From: Antedon mediterranea
Lineage: Eukaryota > Echinodermata > Crinoidea > Comatulida > Antedonidae
Direction of reading: 5' to 3'
Assembly (NCBI RefSeq): GCF_964355755.1
Contig: NC_092672.1
Coordinates: forward strand, 20,456,501-20,520,500
Length of the DNA stretch: 64,000 nt
Positions 5,859 to 58,059 of the stretch are shown in pieces (within the stretch, counting starts at the first letter, position 1; each line of letters begins with the position of its first letter). The position numbers and the translations under genes are program-made. Under the pieces are notes generated by a model. That model worked only from the letters and a program-made list of their open reading frames with translations, made no database searches and was not told the DNA's origin.

Positions 5859-8800
5859 CAACAAGGAATAGAAGAACCACAGCGTACTGAATATTGCCAC
5901 AAGCCAATGCAGGATAACCTCTTGTGATTGTACGAAATCATTGGTTATCCGCAACGAAGTTGCAGGATAACCTCTTGTGATTGTACGAAATCATTCTGTA
6001 TGATTTTTGTGTAACGCTTTTCTCTAAAACTCGCAAACATAACATTTCGGTAACTATCTTAACATATTGACATTTACGTAACGTCGTCAAGCGAAGCTTT
6101 TCATGACGTTTACAATTGCGCAACGTGACTTACGCGCGATTTAACGATTTTGTCGTATTTAACATAGCTCGACAACCAAATAACATTTCAACTTGAAACT
6201 TTGCAAAAGTTTAATTTATATCATGCGCTAACTTTCTGTTGAAAAAAAATTCCGTGTTTTACACAAAGTTACGCGCGCACGCGCATTTAAAATTTCGAAA
6301 TGCGCAAAATTAATTTCTAATCAACTTTCTACGCGTTTCATGTCGTTTTAAGCATGTCAAAAATTCCCACGCGTGCGCACATTTTTACGTGTGCGGTGCG
6401 CACGTAGCATTGAAAACGTAGTTTTTTCGCGTGATTTATGTTTTTCCAGCCTTTTCTAGTAATTTTACCAAATTTTAAACAATTTCGACTTAAAGATACG
6501 TCATACCAGCACGTCGAATTGGACAATTTGCGCGCGTTTTTTATGAAAAGGTTAAAAAATTCGTTTAAAATATGCCTTTTTTTAAACAGTCGTAATTTCT
6601 AAACTAGACGGTCAAATTTTTGTGGATGACATATTCTAGAAGTAGATGAGTTGTAGATGTCGGATCAGGTATTAATATGGCTAACCGGACATTGTGACGT
6701 CATCGTATGGCCACGCGAATATAAAATTTAGGATTTTTGTATCTTTCGTCATAGCTCATCACATTGAATAGAGCGCATCTCCACTTATCCGTTTTCCATT
6801 TTTACCCCGATTTTGATATTGTCTAGGTCAATCAACTATCTTTCGCATGAGTTAAAAATATTTTAATTTTTTTGACGTCATCATGCCTAAAAATTTAAAT
6901 CACGTGTGGCATCAATTTCATCTTTACAGTAAATTTCAATCTGTTATAGCTCGTAAGAATAAAATGTGATAATCACGATTAAAACTTTTTCTGGAAGCTA
7001 TTGGATTGTAGATACGAAATTATGTAAACATGTTGCCAATCGGAAATTGTGACGTCATCATATGGCCAGTTTAATAAAAAAGGTCGTATTTTCATCTTTT
7101 GCGTCATAATTCATTACATTTAAAAGAGCGCGCATCAATATTTCACGTATTCAAATTTCTTCTACACGCTAATACGTTGTTGCTGAAATAATTTCCTTTC
7201 GGAATTGTTACCTTCGCGTTTCATTTTAAAACTGTCAACATGTTAAAAATTGCAATAATTAGCGGGTCCCGTAATTTTACCTATTCTACACTGTATGTGA
7301 TATGGATACAGATTATACTGTGTATACTATATATGAATTTATATATAGATAAAATTCAGCAATAACAACATATCATATTCTTCAGTTCAGGTCATAATGC
7401 CAATGTGACCTCTTCCTTTTGTCCTCAACCTATCCCCTTAATGTTAATGTTGCACCACTTGCGCGGCGGATAACCAAACTCGTCAAAGTGACGAGTTACA
7501 TGTCTAGTTCTGTATGATTTTTGTGTAACGCTTTTCTCTAAAACTCGCAAACATAACATTTCGGTAACTATCTTAACATATTAACATTTACGTAACGTCG
7601 TCAAGCGAAGCTTTTCATGACGTTTACAATTGCGCAACGTGACTTACGCGTGATTTAACGATTTTGTCGTATTTAACATAGCTCGACAACCAAATAACAT
7701 TTCAACTTGAAACTTTGCAAAAGTTTAATTTATATCATGCGCTAACTTTCTGTTGAAAAAAAAATCCGTGTTTTACACAAAGTTACGCGCGCACGCGCAT
7801 TTAAAATTTCAAAATGCGCAAAATTAATTTCTAATCAACTTTCTACGCGTTTCATGTCGTTTTAAGCATGTCAAAAATTCCCACGCGTGCGCACATTTTT
7901 ACGTGTGCGGTGCGCACGTAGCATTGAAAACGTATTTTTTTCGCGTGATTTATGTTTTTCCAGCCTTTTCTAGTAATTTTACCAAATTTTAAACAATTTC
8001 TACTTAAAGATACGTCATACGAGCACGTCGAATTGGACAATTTGCGCGCGTTTGTTATGAAAAGGTTAAAAAATTCGTTTAAAAAATGCCTTTTTTTAAA
8101 CAGTCGTAATTTCTAAACTAGACGGTCAACTTTTTATGGATGGCATATTCTGGAAGTAGATGAGTTGTAGATATCGGATCAGGTATTAATATAGCTAACC
8201 GGACATTGTGACGTCATCGTATGGCCACGCGAATATAAAATTTAGGATTTTTGTATCTTTCGTCATAGCTCATCACATTGAATAGAGCGCATCTCCACTT
8301 ATCTGTTTTCCATTTTCACCCCGATTTTGATATTGTCTGGGTCAATCAACTATCTTTCGCATGAGTAAAAAATATTTTAATTTTTTTGACGTCATCATGC
8401 CTAAAAATTTAAATCACGTGTGGCATCAATTTCATCTTTACAGTAAATTTTAATCTGTTATAGCTCGTAAGAATAAAATGTGATAATCACGATTAAAACT
8501 TTTTCTGGAAGCTATTGGATTGTAGATACGAAATTATGTAAAAATGTTGCCAATCGGATGTTGTGACGTCATCATATGGCCAGTTAAATAAAAAAGGTCG
8601 TATTTTCATCTTTTGCGTCATAATTCATTACATTTAAAAGAGCGCGCATCAATATTTCACGTATTCAAATTTCTTCTACACGCTAATACGTTGTTGCTGA
8701 GATAATTTCCTTTCGGAATTGCTACCTTCGCGTTTCATTTTAAAACCGTCAACATGTTAAAAATTGCAATAAATAGCGGGTCCCGTAATTTCACCTATTC

Positions 8801-28391: not shown

Positions 28392-30139
28392 GCTTCCATG
28401 ATTTTTAACGATTGTTGTCCACTATCTTGCATACCATCATTAAAGGACGTTTTCTTGCATGTGCCATGAAGTCATATGATCCCTCATAGACTGTACGTTA
28501 CGACAGAGTAATTAAATTGTCCGAATGTGGTTAAACAACTTTTATATTTTTTCTAAACATCTAATAACATATTTTATTGTTACTGTATCTTGAAATATTA
28601 TAAAAATAAATTACAGCCTATTATATGCAATTGCTATCATTTAAAATATTCATGCGATCTCAAACAGTATCAAATCAAATTTATTTATGATAGAAATTTC
28701 ATGATAGATTGATAATCTTTTTGAAATTGGTCTATATAAATGTTTGGTTATTATTATTATTGTAGAATTTACAAAAGCAACAAACAATGAACGTTTAACT
28801 TTTTTTTTAATTTGCGAATTTTCTGACTTGCTGTATTAATTTATTATGAAGCAAAGTACAGAATATAACTGTTTATAATATACTTAATAGTAGCCTCATT
28901 TATTTGTATCAAAATATGCTTCAATTAAGATGCCTATGGGCTGACTCAGTAGCCGGTTATCTAATGTATACATTTTAGTTTTCTTATAGTTGTTTAACTT
29001 CATAGGTAGAATAATCATGTTGTCATGCTGTATGTCATTGAATTGAATTGCTACATATATAGAACAACTTTATTAGTTTCTTTCATATGATCATTATCTT
29101 TTGTTTTTCCTGTAAACATTCAGTTGGTTAGATTTTGTCTTGTCTCTGATTATTAACTACTAATGACTTGTTTGATAATGGATTTATTCAATACCTAATT
29201 GCATATAGTAATAACATTACTGTTATCATCTTTTTTGATTTTTGCATTATATTTGGTTTTATAGTCAAACCTGTTTCAAGAGCATTATTCAACATGCATA
29301 TAGATTCACGAAATGTAAAATTGTCATAATAAAAATCATAAAGAAACCTATGTTGGATCGCATTGTACTTTATTTCACCTGTTTTTAACTGTACATGAGA
29401 CAGTATGCGTTTTAAAATGGAATCCCAGAGTTCAGCTGGACTTGTTACATGATTTTTGCTGGTGGTCTAGAGCTGAATAAAAACAGTACCGGTATTAGTA
29501 AAATGTTTGGAATAATAGTGCAATTTCTGGACATACAGAGATTCCCAAATTCCGAACCTTGTACGTGGGCTAATTTACATTTAAATCAGAGCCGAAACTA
29601 GCCCTTGATCCTCACAGTGCCTCTCTGTATTAAACTACAAAATGATAAAATATCATCTCAAACCAATCTATTGAAAATGTAAAATCAAATCTGATAAACT
29701 CAACTAATTTTAAACTGATGATGCAATTTCTTGACTTAAGTTGTAGATTGTAGGATACCTTCCAAGCCATGTATGATAATGACATGATTTTAATCAAACA
29801 TCTTTATTTTATTAATACTTTGTATGAACCTCATCTTATTCAGTGTTTGAGTATTTTTAATAATTCCAGGTAAAAATACATGTACAAAAGATCTTAACCA
29901 ATCATTGTTTTTACATAAGGTACCTTGATACACCTACCTAAAATGGTAATTCACGTTGGTTTGTAGTTCTAATCAACTATATGATAAAAACAAAGAAAAC
30001 CTATGGTGTAAATTTTACAGAATATATTGAATTGCCCTGGTTATCAGATAAAAGTGTTGGTCTTTTGTACAACAATTTGCATTCAAGTATTAATATAGAA
30101 AAAGCATTATATATTTTAGATTTGTTTAGGTTATTAGAG
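28392..30139. other. Non-coding, nothing recognised
   Basis: AT-rich sequence upstream of the 99-bp array. The open frame starting near 29981 runs from unique sequence into the array, but nothing else supports it as a gene. Confidence 0.45.
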
Positions 30140-31217
30140 GAAGGGATAGTATATAGGTTGAGTTTAAAGCCACAATGTGCAGATGATCCCAATGATTGCT
30201 TCATTCTTTGCCATTGTGATGAGCTGTCAACATTAGAGAAAGGGATAGTATATAGGTTGAGTTTAAAGCCACAATCTGCAGATGATCCCAATGATTGCTT
30301 CATTCTTTGCCATTGTGATGAGCTGTCAAAATTAGAGGAAGGGATAGTATTTAGGTTGAGTTTAAGGCCACAATCTGCAGATGATCCCAATGATTGCTTC
30401 ATTCTTTGCCATTGTGATGAGCTGTCAAATTAGAGGAAGGGATAGTATTTAGGTTGAGTTTAAAGCCACAATCTGCAGATGATCCCAATGATTGCTTCAT
30501 TCTTTGCCATTGTGATGAGCTGTCAACATTAGAGAAAGGGATAGTATATAGGTTGAGTTTAAAGCCACAATCTGCAGATGATCCCAATGATTGCTTCATT
30601 CTTTGCCATTGTGATGAGCTGTCAAAATTAGAGGAAGGGATAGTATTTAGGTTGAGTTTAAAGCCACAATCTGCAGATGATCCCAATGATTGCTTCATTT
30701 TTTGCCATTGTGATGAGCTGTCAAATTAGAGGAAGGGATAGTATTTAGGTTGAGTTTAAAGCCACAATCTGCAGATGATCCCAATGATTGCTTCATTCTT
30801 TGCCATTGTGATGAGCTGTCAACATTAGAGGAAGGGATAGTATTTAGGTTGAGTTTAAAGCCACAATCTGCAGATGATCCCAATGATTGCTTCATTCTTT
30901 GCCATTGTGATGAGCTGTCAACATTAGAGGAAGGGATAGTATTTAGGTTGAGTTTAAAGCCACACTCTGCAGATGATCCCAATGATTGCTTCATTCTTTG
31001 CCATTGTGATGAGCTGTCAACATTAGAGGAAGGGATAGTATTTAGGTTGAGTTTAAAGCCACAATCTGCAGATGATCCCAATGATTGCTTCATTCTTTGC
31101 CATTGTGATGAGCTGTCAACATTAGAGGAAGGGATAGTATTTAGGTTGAGTTTAAAGCCACAATCTGCAGATGATCCCAATGATTGCTTCATTCTTTGCC
31201 ATTGTGATGAGCTGTCA
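30140..31217. repeat. Minisatellite, 99-bp unit, 11 copies, with a 3-unit higher-order pattern
   Basis: Each unit contains ATAGGTTGAGTTTAAAGCC or ATTTAGGTTGAGTTTAAAG, then CTGCAGATGATCCCAATGA and GCCATTGTGATGAGCTG. Because 99 is a multiple of three, open frames persist on both strands (33-residue repeats). Units 1-3 and 4-6 repeat as a 296-bp trimer, each trimer ending in a 98-bp unit with a single-base loss that brings a TAG into frame. Units 7-11 are almost homogeneous 99-mers. The protein text matches no family I know, and I read the array as non-coding. Confidence 0.93.
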
Positions 31218-31420
31218 CACAAGTTTCTTTTTATCATTAAGTATCTACCACTAGTATTCAAATAACTCATAATTTTATCATCATGTTTTTATGTCTGTGA
31301 AAAGAAGCTGTGTATTTATTAAAGCAGTTTACTTTAATATAAAAATGTTTTTATTTGAATTGAAAAATTGTTTTTTTTTTATAATATAACATTATACATT
31401 GTTTTTGCGTTTTCTTTCAG

Positions 31421-31483
31421 TTTAGCAATACAATGGCTCTCCATAGAAGGCTGGTTAATCTTTGTAAATTCAATGGCATTCAG
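31421..31483 (+). CDS. Ankyrin-repeat gene, N-terminal exon (probable start codon 31433)
   Basis: The acceptor TTTCTTTCAG precedes it and the donor CAG|GTAGGC follows. The only ATG, at 31433, opens MALHRRLVNLCKFNGIQ, ending in phase 0. This is an amphipathic start typical of the capping segment before ankyrin repeats. The frame is also open back to the acceptor, so this could be an internal exon of 21 codons. If the ATG is the start, an upstream non-coding exon is implied. Confidence 0.62.
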
Positions 31484-32122
31484 GTAGGCAAGTTTACACT
31501 GTTTTAGGATAATAGCATTTAACCAGCAACAATTATAGCAACACTATCACATTAACAACTTAATAAATTGTTCTATTAGCTTATGATATGGAAACAAAAG
31601 AGAACTAAAACAAGTAACTAAATAAATTAAATAGTGACAACAAATTACAGTATTACAATGAACAAAATAATCACTGTAGTGCTTCTATGCTGGTGGCTCA
31701 TTTGATGTGATTGTTTTGATTTAATTTATTGGACCAGCATGATATCAATACAATACATGCAATACAACATATGAAAAATGTTGGGCAGGGGCAGCTTAAG
31801 CAAAATACATTGCTGTAAATCAAATGAACCAGCTACCCCTCATACAAAAATAAATATTAAAAAATAATTAAATACAAATTTCATTAAAATTTTTCTATAA
31901 AAATATGTTTACAAAATTAATGTAAATACAAAATTTAAGGCAAGAAGAAAAAAAAATTATTTATTTGGGCAATCTAATATTATTATAATGATAATATTAT
32001 AATATAATGGCTGTAATTTAATACATAGAATGTATGTTGTCGTCTATGTTTACTATAGTATATATGTATTTTTAAGAAAAATGTAACTGAATGCATATTG
32101 ATCTATATGTTTTATTTCATAG

Positions 32123-46447: not shown

Positions 46448-46668
46448 GAATAAAGAATGAAAAAGAGTAGGGGTAAATATATGGTAAATTCAGTTGTGTT
46501 GAAAGAATTCTGAACATGACAATAATATGATAATATGACATCCAAAGAGGGAGGGAATATCAATGCATACACACATATTTTAAACAGGACGTGGGTCATG
46601 TACCCGAACACGTCCGTAAACATCTAGCCTATATATATGGGACAGTTTCAACCCAGCCGGGTCGATTC

Positions 46669-46966
46669 TGTTGTGATTTTAGGTCGGTGCTGGAATGGCC
46701 TGGTAATGAAAGCTACTAGGCTTACCTTAACAGTCCCGCTTGTCCTAAATCACACAAGTATCCGCAAGCAGTAAATCCAAATATCTTGGTCAATTCCGGT
46801 TGTGTCCGTTTCTCCTTGGTTCCTGCTTCGAATAGATCGGTTCGGCCGGCGTCAAGGCCCCACGTTAACATTTGCATACCCCCTGTATGCAAATCAAGCT
46901 ATCGGGGCGACGCCCTCGTTCGGTCGGAGGGGTGGTCTGTTTACCCAGCGGGCGCCGTTCACAACA
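46669..46966 (-). repeat. 3' LTR of the gypsy element
   Basis: Ends are TGTTGTGA and TCACAACA, perfect 8-bp inverses with TG/CA termini. It is identical to the other LTR except at two positions (near 46686 and 46795). It contains an inverted pair of octamer motifs at 46870-46894. Host ATTC abuts it on the left. Confidence 0.96.
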
Positions 46967-46977
46967 CTCCTCCCGTG
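46967..46977 (-). other. Polypurine tract of the gypsy element
   Basis: On the - strand ACACGGGAGGAG runs directly into the TGTTGTGA start of the 3' LTR. This is the expected position for the plus-strand primer of an LTR retrotransposon. Confidence 0.75.
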
Positions 46978-47198
46978 TTTGAAAAGCGGGCACCCCGTCC
47001 TGGGTCCACCTCGGGGGTAAACCAGGTGATTTTCGTACGTGAAAAAATACCCGATACCCGTAGCTATGTAGACTGCTCCCAACGATCTCTTCAGATAGTC
47101 AATGGCCGTGGGACATGCCAGTAGCACCGTCCCCCGCTTCCGTCAGCAAACGGCACCTGGTCCCTGTCTGAGAGAGAAGAGAAAATAAACGCGAGTAC

Positions 47199-50100
47199 CT
47201 AATTGTTAACCGAGGACTTGCAGTCCGCACATCGATATAAGTCGATGTCCAAGGCCTCAGACGGTGCAATATTCACACATGCACCATGGTACCACACCTC
47301 GCAATAGTCACATTGTATCATAAATGAGCCGGCCCAGGGCTGGCGACATAGACAATACAACGGTCCTCCTGCATCCGGATCTGTAGGTGAAGAGAGAGGA
47401 AGTAAGTTAAAATCAACCAGCCATTTAGGAAGCTGTCGATCCCGACAAGGCTTCAGCTTGTCATGATTTAAAACCACTGTCTTGTTTCTCAGCTGCACCT
47501 GAAATAAACAAGAACTAATAACCTTAGTGATAATACCAGGCCCCTTCCAGGGGGGACACAATTTCTTGCACTTCCCCCGAGGGGTAGCGTTGTCCAGAAC
47601 GTAGACTTTGTCCCCACATTGGTATGGACGTTCCAGCACTCGAAGATCATAGTCCCGTTTCATCCTCTTCTGAGTCTGCTTTAGCGTATCCCTAGCGATG
47701 CCATGGGCATCACGGGTCGCTTTCACCAAATCTGCAACGTAGATAGCGGCTTCCTGCTCATCAGTGGACCGGCATTCTCCGAACATGAGATCAGCTGGTA
47801 AATTAACCTCTCGGCCCAGCATCAGCATGTTTGGAGTAAAACCAGTCAAGCGGTTCACCGTGGCGCGTAGTGCACCAGCAATCTGCGGTAGATAGACATC
47901 CCAGTCTCGTTGTCTCTTCCCAACGAAGCATCGTACAGCATCCATAAGTGTTCGATTAAATCGCTCTACTTGACCATTAGCCGACGGTCGGTAGCTTGTC
48001 GTCCGGGTCTTGTGGATCTGTAAAACTTTACATAAAGATGCAAACAATTCACTCTCAAAATTTCTCCCCTGGTCTGAGTGTAACTGAAAAGGTACACCGA
48101 ATCTAGAGAAGAAGTCCCTTACTAGGGCTCTAGCGGTTACCTCCGCAACCTGAGACGGGAGCGGGCTGATCTCAACCCATTTTGTGAATTGGTCGACCAT
48201 CATAAGAACGTAAATATTCCTCTGTTCAGTTTTTGGTAACGGGCCGAGGAAATCGATATGTACGCGTTCCATTGGAACGCCGGCCTGGAATTCAGTCAAC
48301 CGATGTCGACCTTGCCGAGTAGCCTTCTTGCTTCTATTACAAATATTGCAAGTCTGTACATACCTCTGTATATCCCCGCCCATACCGTACCAGAAAAACT
48401 TCTCCTTCAATCGGAACTTGGTCCGGGCGACCCCTTGATGACCCGCCGACGGCAAATCATGATGTAACCTAAAAGCTACGGCGTGTAGCTCCTTGGGCAA
48501 CACAAGTAGTCGTCCGGTACCCTCTGCTTGGTTGATGAACAGTATACCTGCTTCCGTGAGATGCAAGCGTTGCCTGTTCAGCCAGTAGTGTTTGGTGGCA
48601 GCGCTGGAGATAAACAGCTGATTCTCGGAGGGTTCCCCATTCCGCAACCAGTCCAGAACAGGTGCCAAGTCAGGATCACTCGTTTGATGTTGCCGTAGCT
48701 CATCCAGTGAGTAACCCCAACACTCGGCTTCCTTCGGCCGTAGCTGTACTGCAGCCACTCGTCCACCATCATCGTCCTGTAGGAAAGAAAACTGAATCGT
48801 ACCGTTAGTAGCAGTCCGTGATACCTCTATACTTACTTGTCCACCGGGGTCCCAAGGAACATCGTCCCCTGGCAGAGTACCCTCCAGGTGGTCCACGGCT
48901 ACCTGGTGTACGTGCACGATGGGCACAACGTCGTCCACTTCATCCTGGAACGTTGACCATCTCGCATCCGCTCGTTGACAGTACGAACAGCCCCCACAGG
49001 GAAGCCCTTCAAGCGCAGGCCGTTCGTGGCTACTGTCATGAGTTTCGGGTCGGCGAGACAGAGCATCAGCGTTGCCATGGTGTTGCCCTCGGTGGTGTTC
49101 AATCAACAGGTGGTACTGGCTCAACTCCTCGATCCACCGAGCGAGTTGCCCCTGTGGCTGCTTGAAGTTGAGGAGCCAGGTCAGGCTGTTGTGATCAGTC
49201 CGCACTCTAAAAGGTCTGCCCAGAAGGTAGTGCCTAAAATGCCTTGTCATGAACACAATTGCTAGCAACTCCTTGCGTGTAGTGCAATAGTTCCGTTGTT
49301 CATGAGTTAGACGAGCACTTGCGTATGCAATTACCTTCTCCTTACCTTCCTGCACCTGGAGCAGCTCGCCTCCTAGCGCTTGATCCGAAGCGTCGACATC
49401 CAGAATGAATTCATCAGTCCCGTTCGGCAAGGCGAGTAGAGGAGGTTTAACGAGAGCAGCTTTCAGGTCGGTGAACGCTTGTTGTTGTTCCTCATCCCAG
49501 TGAAACTTCACCTCTTTTTTAGTGAGTTCATATAGAGGTGCAGCTAAACCAGCAAAGTTCTCAATGAACTCTCTATGGTAATTAGCCAACCCCAAGAACT
49601 GCTGTACTTCTCTCAGATTGGTAGGTGTCGGCCAGTCTTGAACAGCCTTTATATCCGAATCGGACACTGCCACCGTATCCTCCCCAACGATTCGCCCTAA
49701 AAACTCAACCTGTTTCTGAAAGAAAACACACTTTTTAGGTTTAAGTTTAAAGTTGTTAACACGAAATTGCTGCAGAACCTGAGAGAGGTTGCTGAGATGA
49801 TCTTCAAACGTTTTACCTAGCACGACAATATCATCGAGAAATGCCAATACCGTATCCCACGCCAATCCCCGCAGCACCAAACCCATGGCACGGGAGAAGG
49901 TTGCAGGACAATTGGTAAGACCAAATGGCATTTTCACGAATTCATACAGGCCATGCTTGGTGATAAACGCTGTCTTCTTACGGTCTTCATCCTTCATCTT
50001 AATCTGCCAGTACCCCCAAATCGCGTCCAGTTTAGAAAACCAGATATTCCCCGACAGTGTGTCAAGGCAATCACGAATCAGAGGTAATGGATACGCATCT

Positions 50101-51347
50101 TTAGTCGTGATGTTGTTGAGAGCTCGATAGTCAATGCAAAAGCGCACAGAACCATCGCGCTTCCGGACCAACACAGGCGGTGACGCCCATTCAGACATGG
50201 ATGGTTGAATAACACCAGCCTCCAACATCTTCTTTATCTCCTTTTCCTCCTCCCCCACAAAGCGCAGAGGAGTATGGCGGAGTCGTTGCCTGATCGGTGA
50301 GGCATCTCCAGTGTCGATGCTGTGTTCAATATCACCAAAGGTGCCAATGTCGAACTGATGAGCGGCGAAGACATCCTGGTAATCAACCAATAGTTTAGTG
50401 AGCGCGTCAGCCTCTTCACCTGAGAGATTAGATCTCGAAGAGTCCAACATGCCCACTAGGTGCGCCGGCACCCCCTCGGGTTGGTTACCGTCATCGTCCG
50501 CTTGATTCGACAAAGCATCCTCGGACGGAGTCACCCCCGTCTGGAACACACTCACCCCTTCAGCTTCCCTGGCCGTACCTATCTGTCTACCCTTTTTCAT
50601 AGTAAGATAGTGATCAGATGTGTTGATGACACAGATGCATGGCGCATCAGTGCGTAGATGTAAAGTTGCCGGTATCGCCACATCGTCAGTAGTTGGAACT
50701 GGCTCTATAAAGAAATCAGGCATAGATACATTGTTAGTCACAAGTTTACATTTAACATGAGCGGCTGAGTGAGGAGGAATTACTCTCCGTTTAGCCACCG
50801 TTACCTGGGCAACCCTAGGTTCCACCGGTGAATCCCCTCTTAGAGATATGGTACTGCCCCCAATTGCCAAAAGCAAATTCCCACAATCGATAACGGCTCC
50901 CTGTGGATGAAGAAAATCACCACCCAAGAGCATATCGTCATTGATGGGGGCAACATAAAAGAATTCATGGTACTCTTTGGTTCCCAATGTAAACTGTAGC
51001 GGCCCCACCTTCGACCCTGGCATAGATGTCCCCCTCCCTGCCAAAGTAAAGGACAGGGTGGACACCACAGGTGGTGCCGGATCTAGACTTTTATAAACCT
51101 TATCGGATAGTATGGTAAAATCCGCTGCAGTATCCACGACTGCGTCAATTTTGGTACCATTGACAAAAGCAGTTGCATGCAACGCATTCAATGATTTTAC
51201 CCTATTGATAACAATCCGGGTTTGCGTCTCTTCAGTTTTGGTTGTCGTCGGTGTAGATGATTCAATCAGCCCTGAGCTAATTGCAGACGGCTCAATGATC
51301 GTCACAGGATCCGGTGCTACCCCCTCTGTATTTACAGGCTTGGCCAT
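47199..51347 (-). CDS. pol: Gypsy Pol: protease, RT, RNase H, integrase, C-terminal PHD finger
   Basis: 1382 codons from the first ATG. The frame is open further upstream to 51458, overlapping gag. Aspartic protease: DTAAD near residue 71 and MLLGGDF. RT from about residue 384, with SKLDAIWGYWQI and the catalytic FLDD near 503. RNase H from about 648 (LDVDASD, RKELLAIV, RTDHNSL). Integrase: HHCC finger about 967-1004 (CNICNRSKK), then the catalytic D near 1030 (HIDFLGP), D near 1091 (HSDQG) and E near 1126 (NGQVERFNR), giving a 35-residue DDE spacing. A GPY/F-like stretch (PPWKGPGIITKV) precedes a PHD finger at about 1327-1376 with C-x-C, C-x2-C, WYHGAC and C-x2-C. All key residues are present, so the enzyme could be active. 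Gypsy elements normally carry a chromodomain or nothing there. Confidence 0.96.
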   Translation of the reverse strand: MAKPVNTEGVAPDPVTIIEPSAISSGLIESSTPTTTKTEETQTRIVINRVKSLNALHATAFVNGTKIDAVVDTAADFTILSDKVYKSLDPAPPVVSTLSFTLAGRGTSMPGSKVGPLQFTLGTKEYHEFFYVAPINDDMLLGGDFLHPQGAVIDCGNLLLAIGGSTISLRGDSPVEPRVAQVTVAKRRVIPPHSAAHVKCKLVTNNVSMPDFFIEPVPTTDDVAIPATLHLRTDAPCICVINTSDHYLTMKKGRQIGTAREAEGVSVFQTGVTPSEDALSNQADDDGNQPEGVPAHLVGMLDSSRSNLSGEEADALTKLLVDYQDVFAAHQFDIGTFGDIEHSIDTGDASPIRQRLRHTPLRFVGEEEKEIKKMLEAGVIQPSMSEWASPPVLVRKRDGSVRFCIDYRALNNITTKDAYPLPLIRDCLDTLSGNIWFSKLDAIWGYWQIKMKDEDRKKTAFITKHGLYEFVKMPFGLTNCPATFSRAMGLVLRGLAWDTVLAFLDDIVVLGKTFEDHLSNLSQVLQQFRVNNFKLKPKKCVFFQKQVEFLGRIVGEDTVAVSDSDIKAVQDWPTPTNLREVQQFLGLANYHREFIENFAGLAAPLYELTKKEVKFHWDEEQQQAFTDLKAALVKPPLLALPNGTDEFILDVDASDQALGGELLQVQEGKEKVIAYASARLTHEQRNYCTTRKELLAIVFMTRHFRHYLLGRPFRVRTDHNSLTWLLNFKQPQGQLARWIEELSQYHLLIEHHRGQHHGNADALSRRPETHDSSHERPALEGLPCGGCSYCQRADARWSTFQDEVDDVVPIVHVHQVAVDHLEGTLPGDDVPWDPGGQVSIEVSRTATNGTIQFSFLQDDDGGRVAAVQLRPKEAECWGYSLDELRQHQTSDPDLAPVLDWLRNGEPSENQLFISSAATKHYWLNRQRLHLTEAGILFINQAEGTGRLLVLPKELHAVAFRLHHDLPSAGHQGVARTKFRLKEKFFWYGMGGDIQRYVQTCNICNRSKKATRQGRHRLTEFQAGVPMERVHIDFLGPLPKTEQRNIYVLMMVDQFTKWVEISPLPSQVAEVTARALVRDFFSRFGVPFQLHSDQGRNFESELFASLCKVLQIHKTRTTSYRPSANGQVERFNRTLMDAVRCFVGKRQRDWDVYLPQIAGALRATVNRLTGFTPNMLMLGREVNLPADLMFGECRSTDEQEAAIYVADLVKATRDAHGIARDTLKQTQKRMKRDYDLRVLERPYQCGDKVYVLDNATPRGKCKKLCPPWKGPGIITKVISSCLFQVQLRNKTVVLNHDKLKPCRDRQLPKWLVDFNLLPLSSPTDPDAGGPLYCLCRQPWAGSFMIQCDYCEVWYHGACVNIAPSEALDIDLYRCADCKSSVNN

Positions 51348-51436
51348 CGGGCCTAGCTTGGGGATAGTCGACGAACCATCCTCTTTCTGGCCAGCTTCCG
51401 GAACCGGGTTAGGTCGTCGGCCCTCTGACCCAACCC

Positions 51437-53314
51437 TTACTCGTTTAACGGATCCGGCTCATTGCCACTAACCTGACGCAAACGGCTCGCTAATCTCGGA
51501 CACTCCCTGCGGAAGTGTCCCACCTCCTTACATTCAAAACAAGCCAGTTCGCCTGGTTTCAGGAAACGCATGAGCTGATCCAATTGATTCCGCATGGCGG
51601 CAATCTCCGTGTTCACGGTGTTCTCCACCCGTCCCAGATTGGTATTCAACGTCTGGAAATTACCCTCCACAGTAGCCAAACGGGCTTCTGTAGTAGGAGT
51701 ATTGTTGGTGGGTGGCACCGACGTCACAGTTCGAGGAACCCAAGCTGGTGCTGGCCTTTGAAACGTTACACGGTTTCCCCTCATAGGCCTCCCTCGCACC
51801 TGCTGAATGGACACCTCATCGACAGTTTCACCCTCGGTATCGTCCTGGTCTTCTGAAGGTAGCTGAAAAGATAGTGGGGGTGCAAAAGAAGTACGGACCG
51901 TGGACCTAACATGAGGTTTCACGGTATCCTTAACCTTACTCTTACGTTTACTATATAGCCCCCTATAACTATCATATTTTTCAAACATCCTAATAGCTCT
52001 GGGAATAGTTGAACAGTGCTTGTGCATGACGTGCCTACCTACTTCTGCATCCCTGCACCCAATACAAAACCTAACTACGGCCTGCTCTTGGATCCACTCC
52101 TTGGGCAAATCCTTAAACGCCTTTCTAGTCAAGGTTAGCACTCTATCTCCCCATTCCTCTATAGTCTCTCCCTCATTTTGCGTAGCAGTCTCTAATTTAG
52201 CTTGGAGGACTGCGGGGAGCTCGTCCTCACTAAAACGTCGGTTGAAAGCTTTAATGATCTGCCTAAAGCCTAAATCAGCGTCCATTTCTATCAGATTCAC
52301 ATAGAACTCAGCCGCCGCCCCGTCTAAACACCAAGTAAGGACGTCCTTACTTTCACGGTTTGTGAGTTCCTGCTCCTCTATAAATGAAGCCAACCGCCGC
52401 TTAAAAAAGGACCAGTTGTCTCCCCTCCCCCTAAACGTTAGAGACCTAGGTATATCTTTTTTACGCATCCTCCTACGTTCTACAAAATCCTGCCGGCCTT
52501 CATAGTGCCTGACTCTCGGGATAGCCCTAAGACACTCCACTGCTGTCCTAGCCCCTGCACTATGTCTATCCGACTGTCTATCCGACTCTCTACTCCTGCT
52601 ACTATCAGTATCAGCACCATCCCCACTAAGGTCACTATCGCTGGCCGATGGAGATCGCCGGCGAGCCCTAGTTTTAGACCTAGCGGTTTTAGATAGTCTC
52701 CTGGGGAGTCTTTCCTCCTCGTCCTCCCTAGAGCTAAAACACGAGTCTAAGGTTATCGGAGATGGCTTTTTGATGTAGCTCCTACGTTGTGTTGACCTAT
52801 TCTTACTCCTATCCTGGTCAGAACGCCCAGCGAAGGTGGATGGCGTATAAGCCCCAAGCCCACCTTCGAGATAACGAGGATCACTAGCAGGTCCTGTAGT
52901 ATAATACGTACCCGGTACGTCTAATAAAGGAGTAGCCTGGGGCGATGAGAGGACGTGGTATCGACCACTATGGCCCCCGTCATTTTTCCCCCGATATGCC
53001 CCTTCCATACCTACAGATTGTGAGACCTGCGACCCCTTTCTGGCCGCTCTATTTTGCTTCTCCACTAGAGGTGACACATTATCAATCATCTGGCCTACGC
53101 CTCCCCCTAAACTCGGATTCGGCTGAAAATCCAGGTAGTCCACCAACCTGGCAGTACCAGCTACTCCGTGTATCTGATTAATATTAGAGGGCGTAATGTT
53201 GCCATGGGTAGCCCGCCATTTAATTATTCTAGTTGCTCGTTTCTTCCCTACATTAGGGACTCCATGAAGATCTTGCACTGGGCAAAAGTTAACTAGAACC
53301 TTATTAGACGACAT
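51437..53314 (-). CDS. gag: Gypsy Gag with N-terminal HhH domain and zinc knuckle
   Basis: 625 codons plus stop. Residues 1-65 read VQDLHGVPNVGKKRATRIIK, then INQIHGVAGTARLVDYLDF, which fits two helix-hairpin-helix motifs of ComEA type (a DNA-binding fold). Residues about 120-280 are low-complexity, rich in Arg, Ser and Asp. The capsid-like core spans about 290-460 (LTFRGRGDNWSFFKRRL, FNRRFSEDELPAVLQAKL, FCIGCRD). Near the end CFECKEVGHFRREC is a CX2CX4HX4C nucleic-acid knuckle (about 595-608). Gag ends in NEPDPLNE. Pol lies in the -1 frame, so a Gag-Pol fusion probably needs frameshifting at 51443-51449. Confidence 0.93.
   Translation of the reverse strand: MSSNKVLVNFCPVQDLHGVPNVGKKRATRIIKWRATHGNITPSNINQIHGVAGTARLVDYLDFQPNPSLGGGVGQMIDNVSPLVEKQNRAARKGSQVSQSVGMEGAYRGKNDGGHSGRYHVLSSPQATPLLDVPGTYYTTGPASDPRYLEGGLGAYTPSTFAGRSDQDRSKNRSTQRRSYIKKPSPITLDSCFSSREDEEERLPRRLSKTARSKTRARRRSPSASDSDLSGDGADTDSSRSRESDRQSDRHSAGARTAVECLRAIPRVRHYEGRQDFVERRRMRKKDIPRSLTFRGRGDNWSFFKRRLASFIEEQELTNRESKDVLTWCLDGAAAEFYVNLIEMDADLGFRQIIKAFNRRFSEDELPAVLQAKLETATQNEGETIEEWGDRVLTLTRKAFKDLPKEWIQEQAVVRFCIGCRDAEVGRHVMHKHCSTIPRAIRMFEKYDSYRGLYSKRKSKVKDTVKPHVRSTVRTSFAPPLSFQLPSEDQDDTEGETVDEVSIQQVRGRPMRGNRVTFQRPAPAWVPRTVTSVPPTNNTPTTEARLATVEGNFQTLNTNLGRVENTVNTEIAAMRNQLDQLMRFLKPGELACFECKEVGHFRRECPRLASRLRQVSGNEPDPLNE
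51443..51449 (-). promoter_or_regulatory. Candidate -1 ribosomal frameshift heptamer GTTAAAC
   Basis: On the - strand the gag frame reads CCG TTA AAC GAG TAA, placing G-TTA-AAC in the X-XXY-YYZ register. The pol frame is -1 relative to gag and open from 51458, so a slip here would join Gag directly to Pol. The heptamer sits one codon before the gag stop. GTTAAAC is a known slippery variant. Confidence 0.6.
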
Positions 53315-54139
53315 GATCTAAAAAGTGTCTCTCTTCTATTGGGTTGTTATGCTCCTAAATCTAGTTACAGTGTATGGCAGATGTTATTAAGCAAAGAGTA
53401 CGATACAAATTAAAATACCGCCAGACGTAATAAAAATTACAGGCCCAACAGTAGAATAAAATATCGTCAATGCAGTAACACACACACAATATTGCAAAAT
53501 GGTTGTTGGAGATGCAAATATAATAAAATATTTCACCAGCAAACCTGCAATAAGAAACAACTAGATTATTCAAAAAGACGTCAATACAGTTTAACAACAC
53601 TTACCACTAAACCTTCCCCCGATGCAAAGAAAGGAGAGCGATAATGCCACTGTGAGGTTAACACAATAATACGCACAGCCAATATAATTTCTCAAGATGA
53701 AAAACCTGACTGACGGACGAAAAAGATGTTATCAATAAAAAACAATCAAATTTAAAATTAGTGGTGCCACTCAGTTCAACGGCCACGCCTAGTATCCCAC
53801 CAGGTGATACGGCCTAGTAAACTGCCCACTAATCCTTCAACTATAGCAAAATAAATACAACTCCCGGTACGCATCGACTACCCCGTCGATACGCTAATCA
53901 GCAAGCATCCAAATGCCACAATACTGCGTGATTAACTTTACCGGTATGTTATACCTTCAATAAATATACCAACTTCAATAAACTAACAAATGCACCGTAA
54001 GTACAATAAGTTAATAATTTCAGCAGAGGACGAAATACCTCGCAATCAACCCGATCACGTTAAGAATGCCAGCTGGCAATCAAGGCACCCGCCTCCCCAC
54101 CAAAAAAAAAGATTTCCGAGCTTTTGCTCGCAGCGCCAA
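53315..54139 (-). other. 5' leader of the gypsy element
   Basis: About 825 bp between the 5' LTR and gag with no long frame. Immediately inside the LTR on the - strand lies TTGGCGCTGCGAGC, then AAAAGCTCGG. The TGG start fits a tRNA primer-binding site (tRNA not identified), and CGAGC-AAAA-GCTCG can fold as a small hairpin. The packaging signal would be expected here but cannot be seen. Confidence 0.6.
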
Positions 54140-54437
54140 TGTTGTGATTTTAGGTCAGTGCTGGAATGGCCTGGTAATGAAAGCTACTAGGCTTACCTTA
54201 ACAGTCCCGCTTGTCCTAAATCACACAAGTATCCGCAAGCAGTAAATCCAAATATCTTGGTCAATTTCGGTTGTGTCCGTTTCTCCTTGGTTCCTGCTTC
54301 GAATAGATCGGTTCGGCCGGCGTCAAGGCCCCACGTTAACATTTGCATACCCCCTGTATGCAAATCAAGCTATCGGGGCGACGCCCTCGTTCGGTCGGAG
54401 GGGTGGTCTGTTTACCCAGCGGGCGCCGTTCACAACA
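54140..54437 (-). repeat. 5' LTR of the gypsy element
   Basis: 298 bp, a near-identical partner of 46669-46966, flanked on the right by ATTC, the target duplication. It contains the octamer pair at 54341-54365, which probably contributes to promoter activity. The LTR should drive transcription leftward into gag. Confidence 0.96.
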
Positions 54438-54544
54438 ATTCGCCCCTCTATATGGATAGGCAAACTCTACACTCTCTCGCGACAATATGCTAGCCTACAG
54501 TTTTGTTACTTCTATATGAACATTTTTACCGAACAATTACTCAC

Positions 54545-57960: not shown

Positions 57961-58059
57961 AATGGTTGGACAGCTTTGCATAATGCAGCATTCTATGGAG
58001 AAACAGACTGTTGCAGCCTGCTGGTGAATGCAGGAGCAGGTGTCAATGTATCAGAAGAA
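57961..58059 (+). CDS. Ankyrin-repeat gene, 99-bp repeat exon
   Basis: Acceptor CATATTATAG, donor GAA|GTAAGT, exactly 33 codons in phase 0: NGWTALHNAAFYGETDCCSL, then LVNAGAGVNVSEE. Helix 1 (TALHNAAFYG) and the GAGVNV turn are canonical. The last residues differ from exon 3, suggesting it is followed by another repeat beyond the window or in unrecognised sequence. The 23 kb separation from exon 3 is filled by the decayed exon, a hAT-like MITE, a minisatellite and the gypsy nest. Confidence 0.92.

What the first reader, a model, noticed from the sequence alone, without database searches (positions are those of the whole stretch)
47199..47370. KDM7/PHF8-like PHD finger fused to a Ty3/gypsy integrase
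The last 50 or so residues of Pol form a PHD finger whose text (PLYCLCRQP, FMIQCDYC, WYHGACV, DIDLYRCADC) resembles the PHD of the KDM7/PHF2/PHF8 demethylases, known readers of H3K4me3. Chromoviruses use an integrase chromodomain to choose their insertion sites. This element may use a PHD to choose active promoters or other H3K4me3 chromatin. Seen: the domain and its position. Known: the KDM7 PHD reads H3K4me3. Inferred: a targeting role and capture from a host gene. I cannot say whether it has been reported.
Basis: partly seen in the sequence, partly recalled or inferred. Interest (0 to 1): 0.88.

Follow-up and report, generated by a model that had tools for sequence, protein, structure and literature searches.

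The report
Gypsy integrase with histone-reading PHD finger
The integrase of this animal retrotransposon ends in a PHD zinc finger, kept in related elements of molluscs, echinoderms and a crayfish, which is predicted to read the H3K4me3 mark of active genes and would likely steer new insertions towards them.

Summary
A Ty3/gypsy element (46669-54437, minus strand; 298-bp LTRs, 2 differences; ATTC target duplication) has one open Pol frame ending in a PHD finger (Pfam PF00628, E 2.5e-10), just behind the integrase SH3-like domain, where chromoviruses carry a chromodomain. It is no freak of one copy: of 215 proteins inspected (the window's tail included), 167 match a PHD model; of 152 complete fingers, 146 keep all eight zinc ligands, 152 the cage Trp, 150 the cage Met, 144 the cage Tyr/Phe. 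Named hosts are molluscs, echinoderms and a crayfish. The window copy is nearest KDM7-family PHDs (PHF8, PHF2, KDM7A) and has a Y-W-M-W version of their Y-Y-M-W methyl-lysine cage; its model superposes on H3K4me3-bound PHDs. Capture from KDM7 itself is not shown: the clade profile scores KDM7, DIDO1, CFP1 and BPTF nearly alike. H3K4me3 reading and steering of integration are inferred; there are no binding or insertion-site data. The open literature searched has PHDs in LINE ORF1 and one Ginger1 transposase, and an engineered PHD tether for HIV-1, but showed no PHD on a Ty3/gypsy integrase.

The parts
46669..54437 (-). Ty3/gypsy LTR retrotransposon, LTR to LTR
   Evidence: 298-bp LTRs, 2 differences, TGTTGTGA...TCACAACA ends; flanking ATTC at 46665-46668 and 54438-54441
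54140..54437 (-). 5' LTR
46669..46966 (-). 3' LTR
51437..53314 (-). gag ORF, 625 aa; capsid-like and CCHC zinc-knuckle matches
   Evidence: ORF; PF03732 1.3e-5, PF00098 3.1e-5; CCHC motif
47199..51347 (-). pol ORF, 1382 aa from its first listed start (frame open upstream to 51458, -1 relative to gag): protease, RT, RNase H, integrase, PHD
   Evidence: searched in pieces
50907..51170 (-). aspartic-protease-like domain
   Evidence: PF13975 4.8e-7
49692..50168 (-). reverse transcriptase
   Evidence: PF00078 3e-32; Ty3-G Gag-Pol 7q5b 6.7e-48 and 4ol8 8.1e-49 best PDB matches
49113..49499 (-). RNase H
   Evidence: PF17917 9.3e-35, PF17919 3.2e-33
48324..48497 (-). integrase H2C2 zinc-binding domain
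   Evidence: PF17921 1e-17
47985..48275 (-). integrase catalytic core; D35E spacing present
   Evidence: PF00665 1.1e-15
47436..47633 (-). integrase C-terminal SH3-like domain (GP-G form of the GPY/F region)
47367..47393 (-). low-confidence linker between integrase CTD and PHD
   Evidence: pLDDT under 50 at residues 186-194
47220..47357 (-). PHD finger: C4HC3 ligands 47220-47354, cage residues Y198 (47355-47357), W205 (47334-47336), M210 (47319-47321), W219 (47292-47294) of the 249-residue tail P0001

Best explanation
The last 50 residues of this Ty3/gypsy Pol are a PHD finger joined to the integrase C-terminal domain, predicted to bind the H3K4me3 histone tail and so likely to tether the pre-integration complex to nucleosomes of active promoters. 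Shown here: the fusion, the PHD family membership, the kept zinc ligands and cage residues, the predicted fold, and conservation across many related elements. Inferred step 1: the Y-W-M-W cage holds trimethyl-lysine 4 of H3, as the Y-Y-M-W cage of KDM7 does. Inferred step 2: integrase brings cDNA to such nucleosomes, because the PHD sits behind a probably flexible linker next to the SH3-like domain, the position of the chromodomain in chromoviruses. Inferred step 3: insertions are therefore enriched near transcription starts or in expressed genes, which favours later expression of the element. Also inferred: the finger came from a host PHD of the KDM7/DIDO/CFP1/BPTF group, before the sampled elements of molluscs, echinoderms and crayfish diverged or spread.
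Confidence: 0.6

Rival explanations
1. The PHD binds H3K4me3 or another histone state but serves a step other than target choice, for example keeping the pre-integration complex on chromatin through division, or recruiting host remodellers to express the provirus.
For: Cage conserved, yet nothing here ties it to site choice; the PHD lies in Pol and could act before or after strand transfer.
Against: It follows the integrase SH3-like domain directly, and an engineered PHD tether sufficed to redirect HIV-1 integration (PMC8149907, passage).
Confidence: 0.2
2. The PHD reads something else: unmethylated H3K4, another methyl-lysine, DNA or an integrase partner.
For: The second cage position is not conserved (W/D/Y). 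EBS/SHL proteins with related PHDs also appear in H3K27me3 complexes (titles; that their BAH domain does this is recalled). Some PHDs bind DNA or non-histone ligands (PMC10321576, passages), and PHF2's PHD is also solved with a VRK1 peptide (title).
Against: Trp 152 of 152 and Met 150 of 152 at cage positions; readers of unmethylated H3K4 generally lack that Trp (recalled).
Confidence: 0.15
3. The PHD is a passenger or merely a structural cap of the integrase, with no ligand.
For: 6 of 152 complete fingers have a broken ligand, and many copies are cut short before the finger.
Against: Broken ones may be ordinary dead copies (inference); the finger is better conserved than the part before it, and cage residues are among its most conserved.
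Confidence: 0.05

Closest known systems
Chromoviruses (Ty3/gypsy integrases with a C-terminal chromodomain)
   Same: Ty3/gypsy Pol order; a histone-reading type of domain behind the integrase CTD; likely same logic of chromatin tethering
   Different: PHD finger instead of chromodomain (no Chromo match in the tail); predicted mark is H3K4me3 rather than methylated heterochromatin (chromodomain passage in PMC3601003; H3K9me recalled)
KDM7 family PHD (PHF8, PHF2, KDM7A)
   Same: C4HC3 PHD, Y-x-M-W cage, best PDB matches of this copy, DIDLY string shared with PHF8 and KDM7A
   Different: W for Tyr14, one residue shorter before FMI; no JmjC; fused to integrase; clade as a whole equally near DIDO1, CFP1, BPTF
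CR1 and L2 LINEs with a PHD in ORF1 (PMC4120745, passages; Kapitonov and Jurka 2003 cited there, not held)
   Same: A retroelement carrying a PHD; [quoted passage not shown]
   Different: Non-LTR element, PHD in ORF1, not on an integrase
Ginger1-9_HM DNA transposon (PMC2836005, passages)
   Same: Gypsy-like integrase/transposase with a PHD among its C-terminal domains
   Different: DNA transposon with inverted repeats; PHD together with a Ulp1 domain; listed for one of 16 Ginger1 families in Table 1
ING2 PHD-LEDGF IBD fusion (Ferris 2010, cited in PMC8149907)
   Same: H3K4me3-reading PHD steering integration
   Different: Engineered host factor in trans, HIV-1

Membership tests
Ty3/gypsy (Metaviridae) LTR retrotransposon | LTRs with target duplication | tested here: met
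   298-bp LTRs, ATTC duplication
Ty3/gypsy (Metaviridae) LTR retrotransposon | Pol order protease-RT-RNase H-integrase, RT nearest Ty3 | tested here: met
   Pfam order in pieces; 4ol8 (Ty3 RT, recalled) 8.1e-49 and Ty3-G 7q5b 6.7e-48 are the top PDB matches
Chromovirus | chromodomain at the integrase C-terminus | tested here: not met
   only PHD-type and weak integrase-C matches in the last 249 residues at E up to 0.1
PHD finger (PF00628) | profile match over cut-off with C4HC3 ligands | tested here: met
   40.6 bits against cut-off 24; ligands read
H3K4me3-reading PHD | aromatic/Met cage (KDM7 YYMW) | tested here: met
   YWMW in this copy; Y/F 144, M 150, W 152 of 152; second position variable
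H3K4me3-reading PHD | binds H3K4me3 peptide | not testable with these tools
   needs ITC or peptide array
KDM7-derived PHD | groups with KDM7 PHDs in a tree to the exclusion of other PHDs | tested here: inconclusive
   quick tree, 51 columns, 4 of 139 inner branches supported; the four KDM7 rows group with each other; profile does not separate families
Ginger1 transposon | terminal inverted repeats of a DNA transposon, no LTRs or RT | tested here: not met
   LTRs and RT present

The most novel reading that the evidence does not exclude
A widespread, old clade of animal Ty3/gypsy elements, the mirror image of chromoviruses, chose active promoters instead of heterochromatin by welding an H3K4me3 reader to its integrase; nature made the tether that engineers later built for HIV-1.
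Probability: 0.5. Interest if true: 0.85.

Novelty: new variant of a known kind. Interest (0 to 1): 0.74.

Why it matters
Chromodomain integrases taught that retrotransposons can read histone marks to pick insertion sites. A clade that reads (as predicted) the opposite, active mark would give a natural test of how tethering specificity shapes element spread, host damage and genome architecture in molluscs and echinoderms. Public annotation has filed pieces of it as host chromatin genes (COMPASS SPP1, ING4-like, ALFIN-like), so it also corrects those records.

Tried and rejected
Chance or artefact: rejected by Pfam and by recurrence. Read-in from a neighbouring host gene: rejected, one ORF before a 3' LTR. 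KDM7 origin as a fact: not accepted.

PHD-less relatives: of 99 rows (window included) with at least 300 aligned integrase columns, 79 have a PHD match. Of the 20 without, by my reading of the tails only 3 (P0186, P0210, P0213) run on into a different long tail; the other 17 end before, or seem to lose frame in or near, the PHD. In the integrase tree (96 rows) those 3 plus truncated P0209 form a clade (100/97), next to PHD-bearing P0061 and truncated P0183 (six rows, 99/96); the root is arbitrary, so gain against loss there is open. The label needs 15 changes, at least 14 by supported branches, against a shuffled mean of 17.5. Named proteins without a finger: Mytilus edulis P0080, Nucella P0081, Pinctada P0188, Anneissia P0202.

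Led nowhere: own-genome search (not completed), so sister copies' insertion sites could not be mapped and no dN/dS was made; viral and bacterial contig scans (no relatives by tblastn); a PHD-only protein search (one candidate, none significant); Rfam and tRNA scans (nothing). The careful PHD tree did not finish; the quick one is cited. Folds not listed are not taken as absent. Host species is not known; the nearest relative is a protein of the crinoid Anneissia japonica (71 percent identity over 99 percent of 499 aa).

Full report
OBSERVATION. The window holds a minus-strand LTR element at 46669-54437. Its 298-bp LTRs differ at two positions and have TGTTGTGA/TCACAACA ends, and ATTC flanks both sides. 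Gag (51437-53314, 625 aa) and Pol (47199-51347, 1382 aa) are open. Pol lies in the -1 frame and its frame overlaps the end of gag; a GTTAAAC heptamer sits there in the phase expected of a -1 slippery site (read; that such a heptamer works in a virus is recalled). Searched in pieces, Pol has protease-, RT-, RNase H-, H2C2- and rve-domains in Ty3 order, and its RT is nearest Ty3 among solved structures (Ty3-G 7q5b 6.7e-48; 4ol8, Ty3 RT by recall, 8.1e-49). The last 59 residues are PF00628 PHD at 2.5e-10.

BREADTH. Two protein searches gave 161 and 1827 significant proteins, of which the best 120 each were listed. I inspected the 215 different proteins P0001-P0215, P0001 being the window's own tail. 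92 of the first 121 and 75 of the next 94 match the PHD model, all at E 1e-3 or better: 167 of 215. Named hosts with a complete finger: Pecten, Mercenaria, Mytilus galloprovincialis, Haliotis and Patella (molluscs), Anneissia and Lytechinus (echinoderms), Procambarus (crayfish); with a partial one: Argopecten, Dreissena, Strongylocentrotus, Acanthaster (tables). Named proteins without one: Mytilus edulis P0080, Nucella P0081, Pinctada P0188, Anneissia P0202. A few come from bacterial MAG records such as Candidatus Thiodiazotropha, most likely contamination by an animal host (inference). 152 fingers are complete: ligands intact in 146; W29 position Trp 152; M20 position Met 150; Y7 position Tyr 128, Phe 16; Y14 position Trp 65, Asp 54, Tyr 18, others 15; the Asp after the third Cys 135. 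The model came from 69 proteins picked by a C4HC3 pattern, so the ligand counts are partly circular; among the 83 complete fingers not used for it, ligands are intact in 77, Trp in 83, Met in 83, Tyr/Phe in 79.

INHERITANCE. For 74 elements with both parts, mean pairwise identity is 0.64 for H2C2+core, 0.47 for the helices and CTD before the finger, 0.51 for PHD; PHD distances follow core distances (r 0.48) and CTD distances (r 0.66), 0 of 999 permutations as high in each. The finger thus travels with the integrase and is at least as constrained as the part before it; only rows with a PHD match entered this comparison. The integrase tree joins the window to Anneissia P0122 (100/100) and sets a small lineage with other tails (P0186, P0210, P0213) apart, but PHD-bearing P0061 lies beside it, and presence of the finger is only weakly clustered overall (24 of 500 shuffles as low), which I put down mainly to truncated copies. 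The PHD quick tree with nine host PHDs has 4 supported inner branches of 139; it does not rule out one origin and does not show the donor. By pairwise score 88 of 154 element PHDs are nearest KDM7, 48 CFP1/SPP1, 13 DIDO/PPS, 5 BPTF.

SETTING. The element lies in sense orientation in a predicted phase-0 intron of a minus-strand Cys-rich gene: donor GAG|GTGAGT about 0.1 kb on one side, acceptor CTAG|TGTGAA about 0.2 kb on the other (no transcript was seen, and Pfam names neither exon). CpG o/e is 1.18 in the right 1 kb, 0.54 in the left, 0.81 over the window. This is one insertion and is offered as context only.

MECHANISM. Shown: fusion, cage residues, conservation; predicted: fold. Inferred: H3K4me3 binding; tethering; enrichment near active genes. 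The engineered ING2-PHD/LEDGF fusions that moved HIV-1 integration towards start sites (review passage) show that such a tether can work.

KNOWN OR NEW. Ten full-text searches of the open-licence PMC library were made, eight of them (all but 44 and 73) on PHDs and retroelements. I looked at passages in PMC3286476, PMC5408684, PMC3601003, PMC6875170, PMC2836005, PMC8149907, PMC4120745, PMC10799480, PMC4255032, PMC6409691, PMC10321576, PMC11790891 and PMC7613515; the other listed papers were seen in listings only. They gave PHDs in CR1/L2 ORF1 and in Ginger1-9_HM, and no PHD on a Ty3/gypsy integrase. Subscription papers and Repbase notes are not held, so an earlier report is possible. I rate it a new variant of a known kind.

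Noticed in passing
P0070, P0177, P0102, P0093: Integrase-PHD fragments are named as host chromatin genes in public records (COMPASS component SPP1, inhibitor of growth protein 4-like, PHD finger protein ALFIN-LIKE 3-like).
   Followed up: partly
window 53000-53314 (-): The Gag N-terminus gives a helix-hairpin-helix match (HHH_3, 1e-5, 26 bits, just under the Pfam cut-off of 27), which I would not expect in a Gag.
   Followed up: no
window 50907-51170 (-): The protease active-site motif of this copy is atypical, so its activity is not assured although the frame is open.
   Followed up: no
window 29942-31288: Tandem coding-like repeat (unit near LEEGIVFRLSLKPQSADDPNDCFILCHCDELS) open on both strands, CpG o/e 0.02 in 30001-32000.
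   Followed up: no
window 6001-8000: CpG observed/expected of 2.04, far above the window value of 0.81.
   Followed up: no
window 57961-58053 (+): Ankyrin-repeat exon (Ank 4.7e-8) on the opposite strand from the predicted gene that hosts the element.
   Followed up: no
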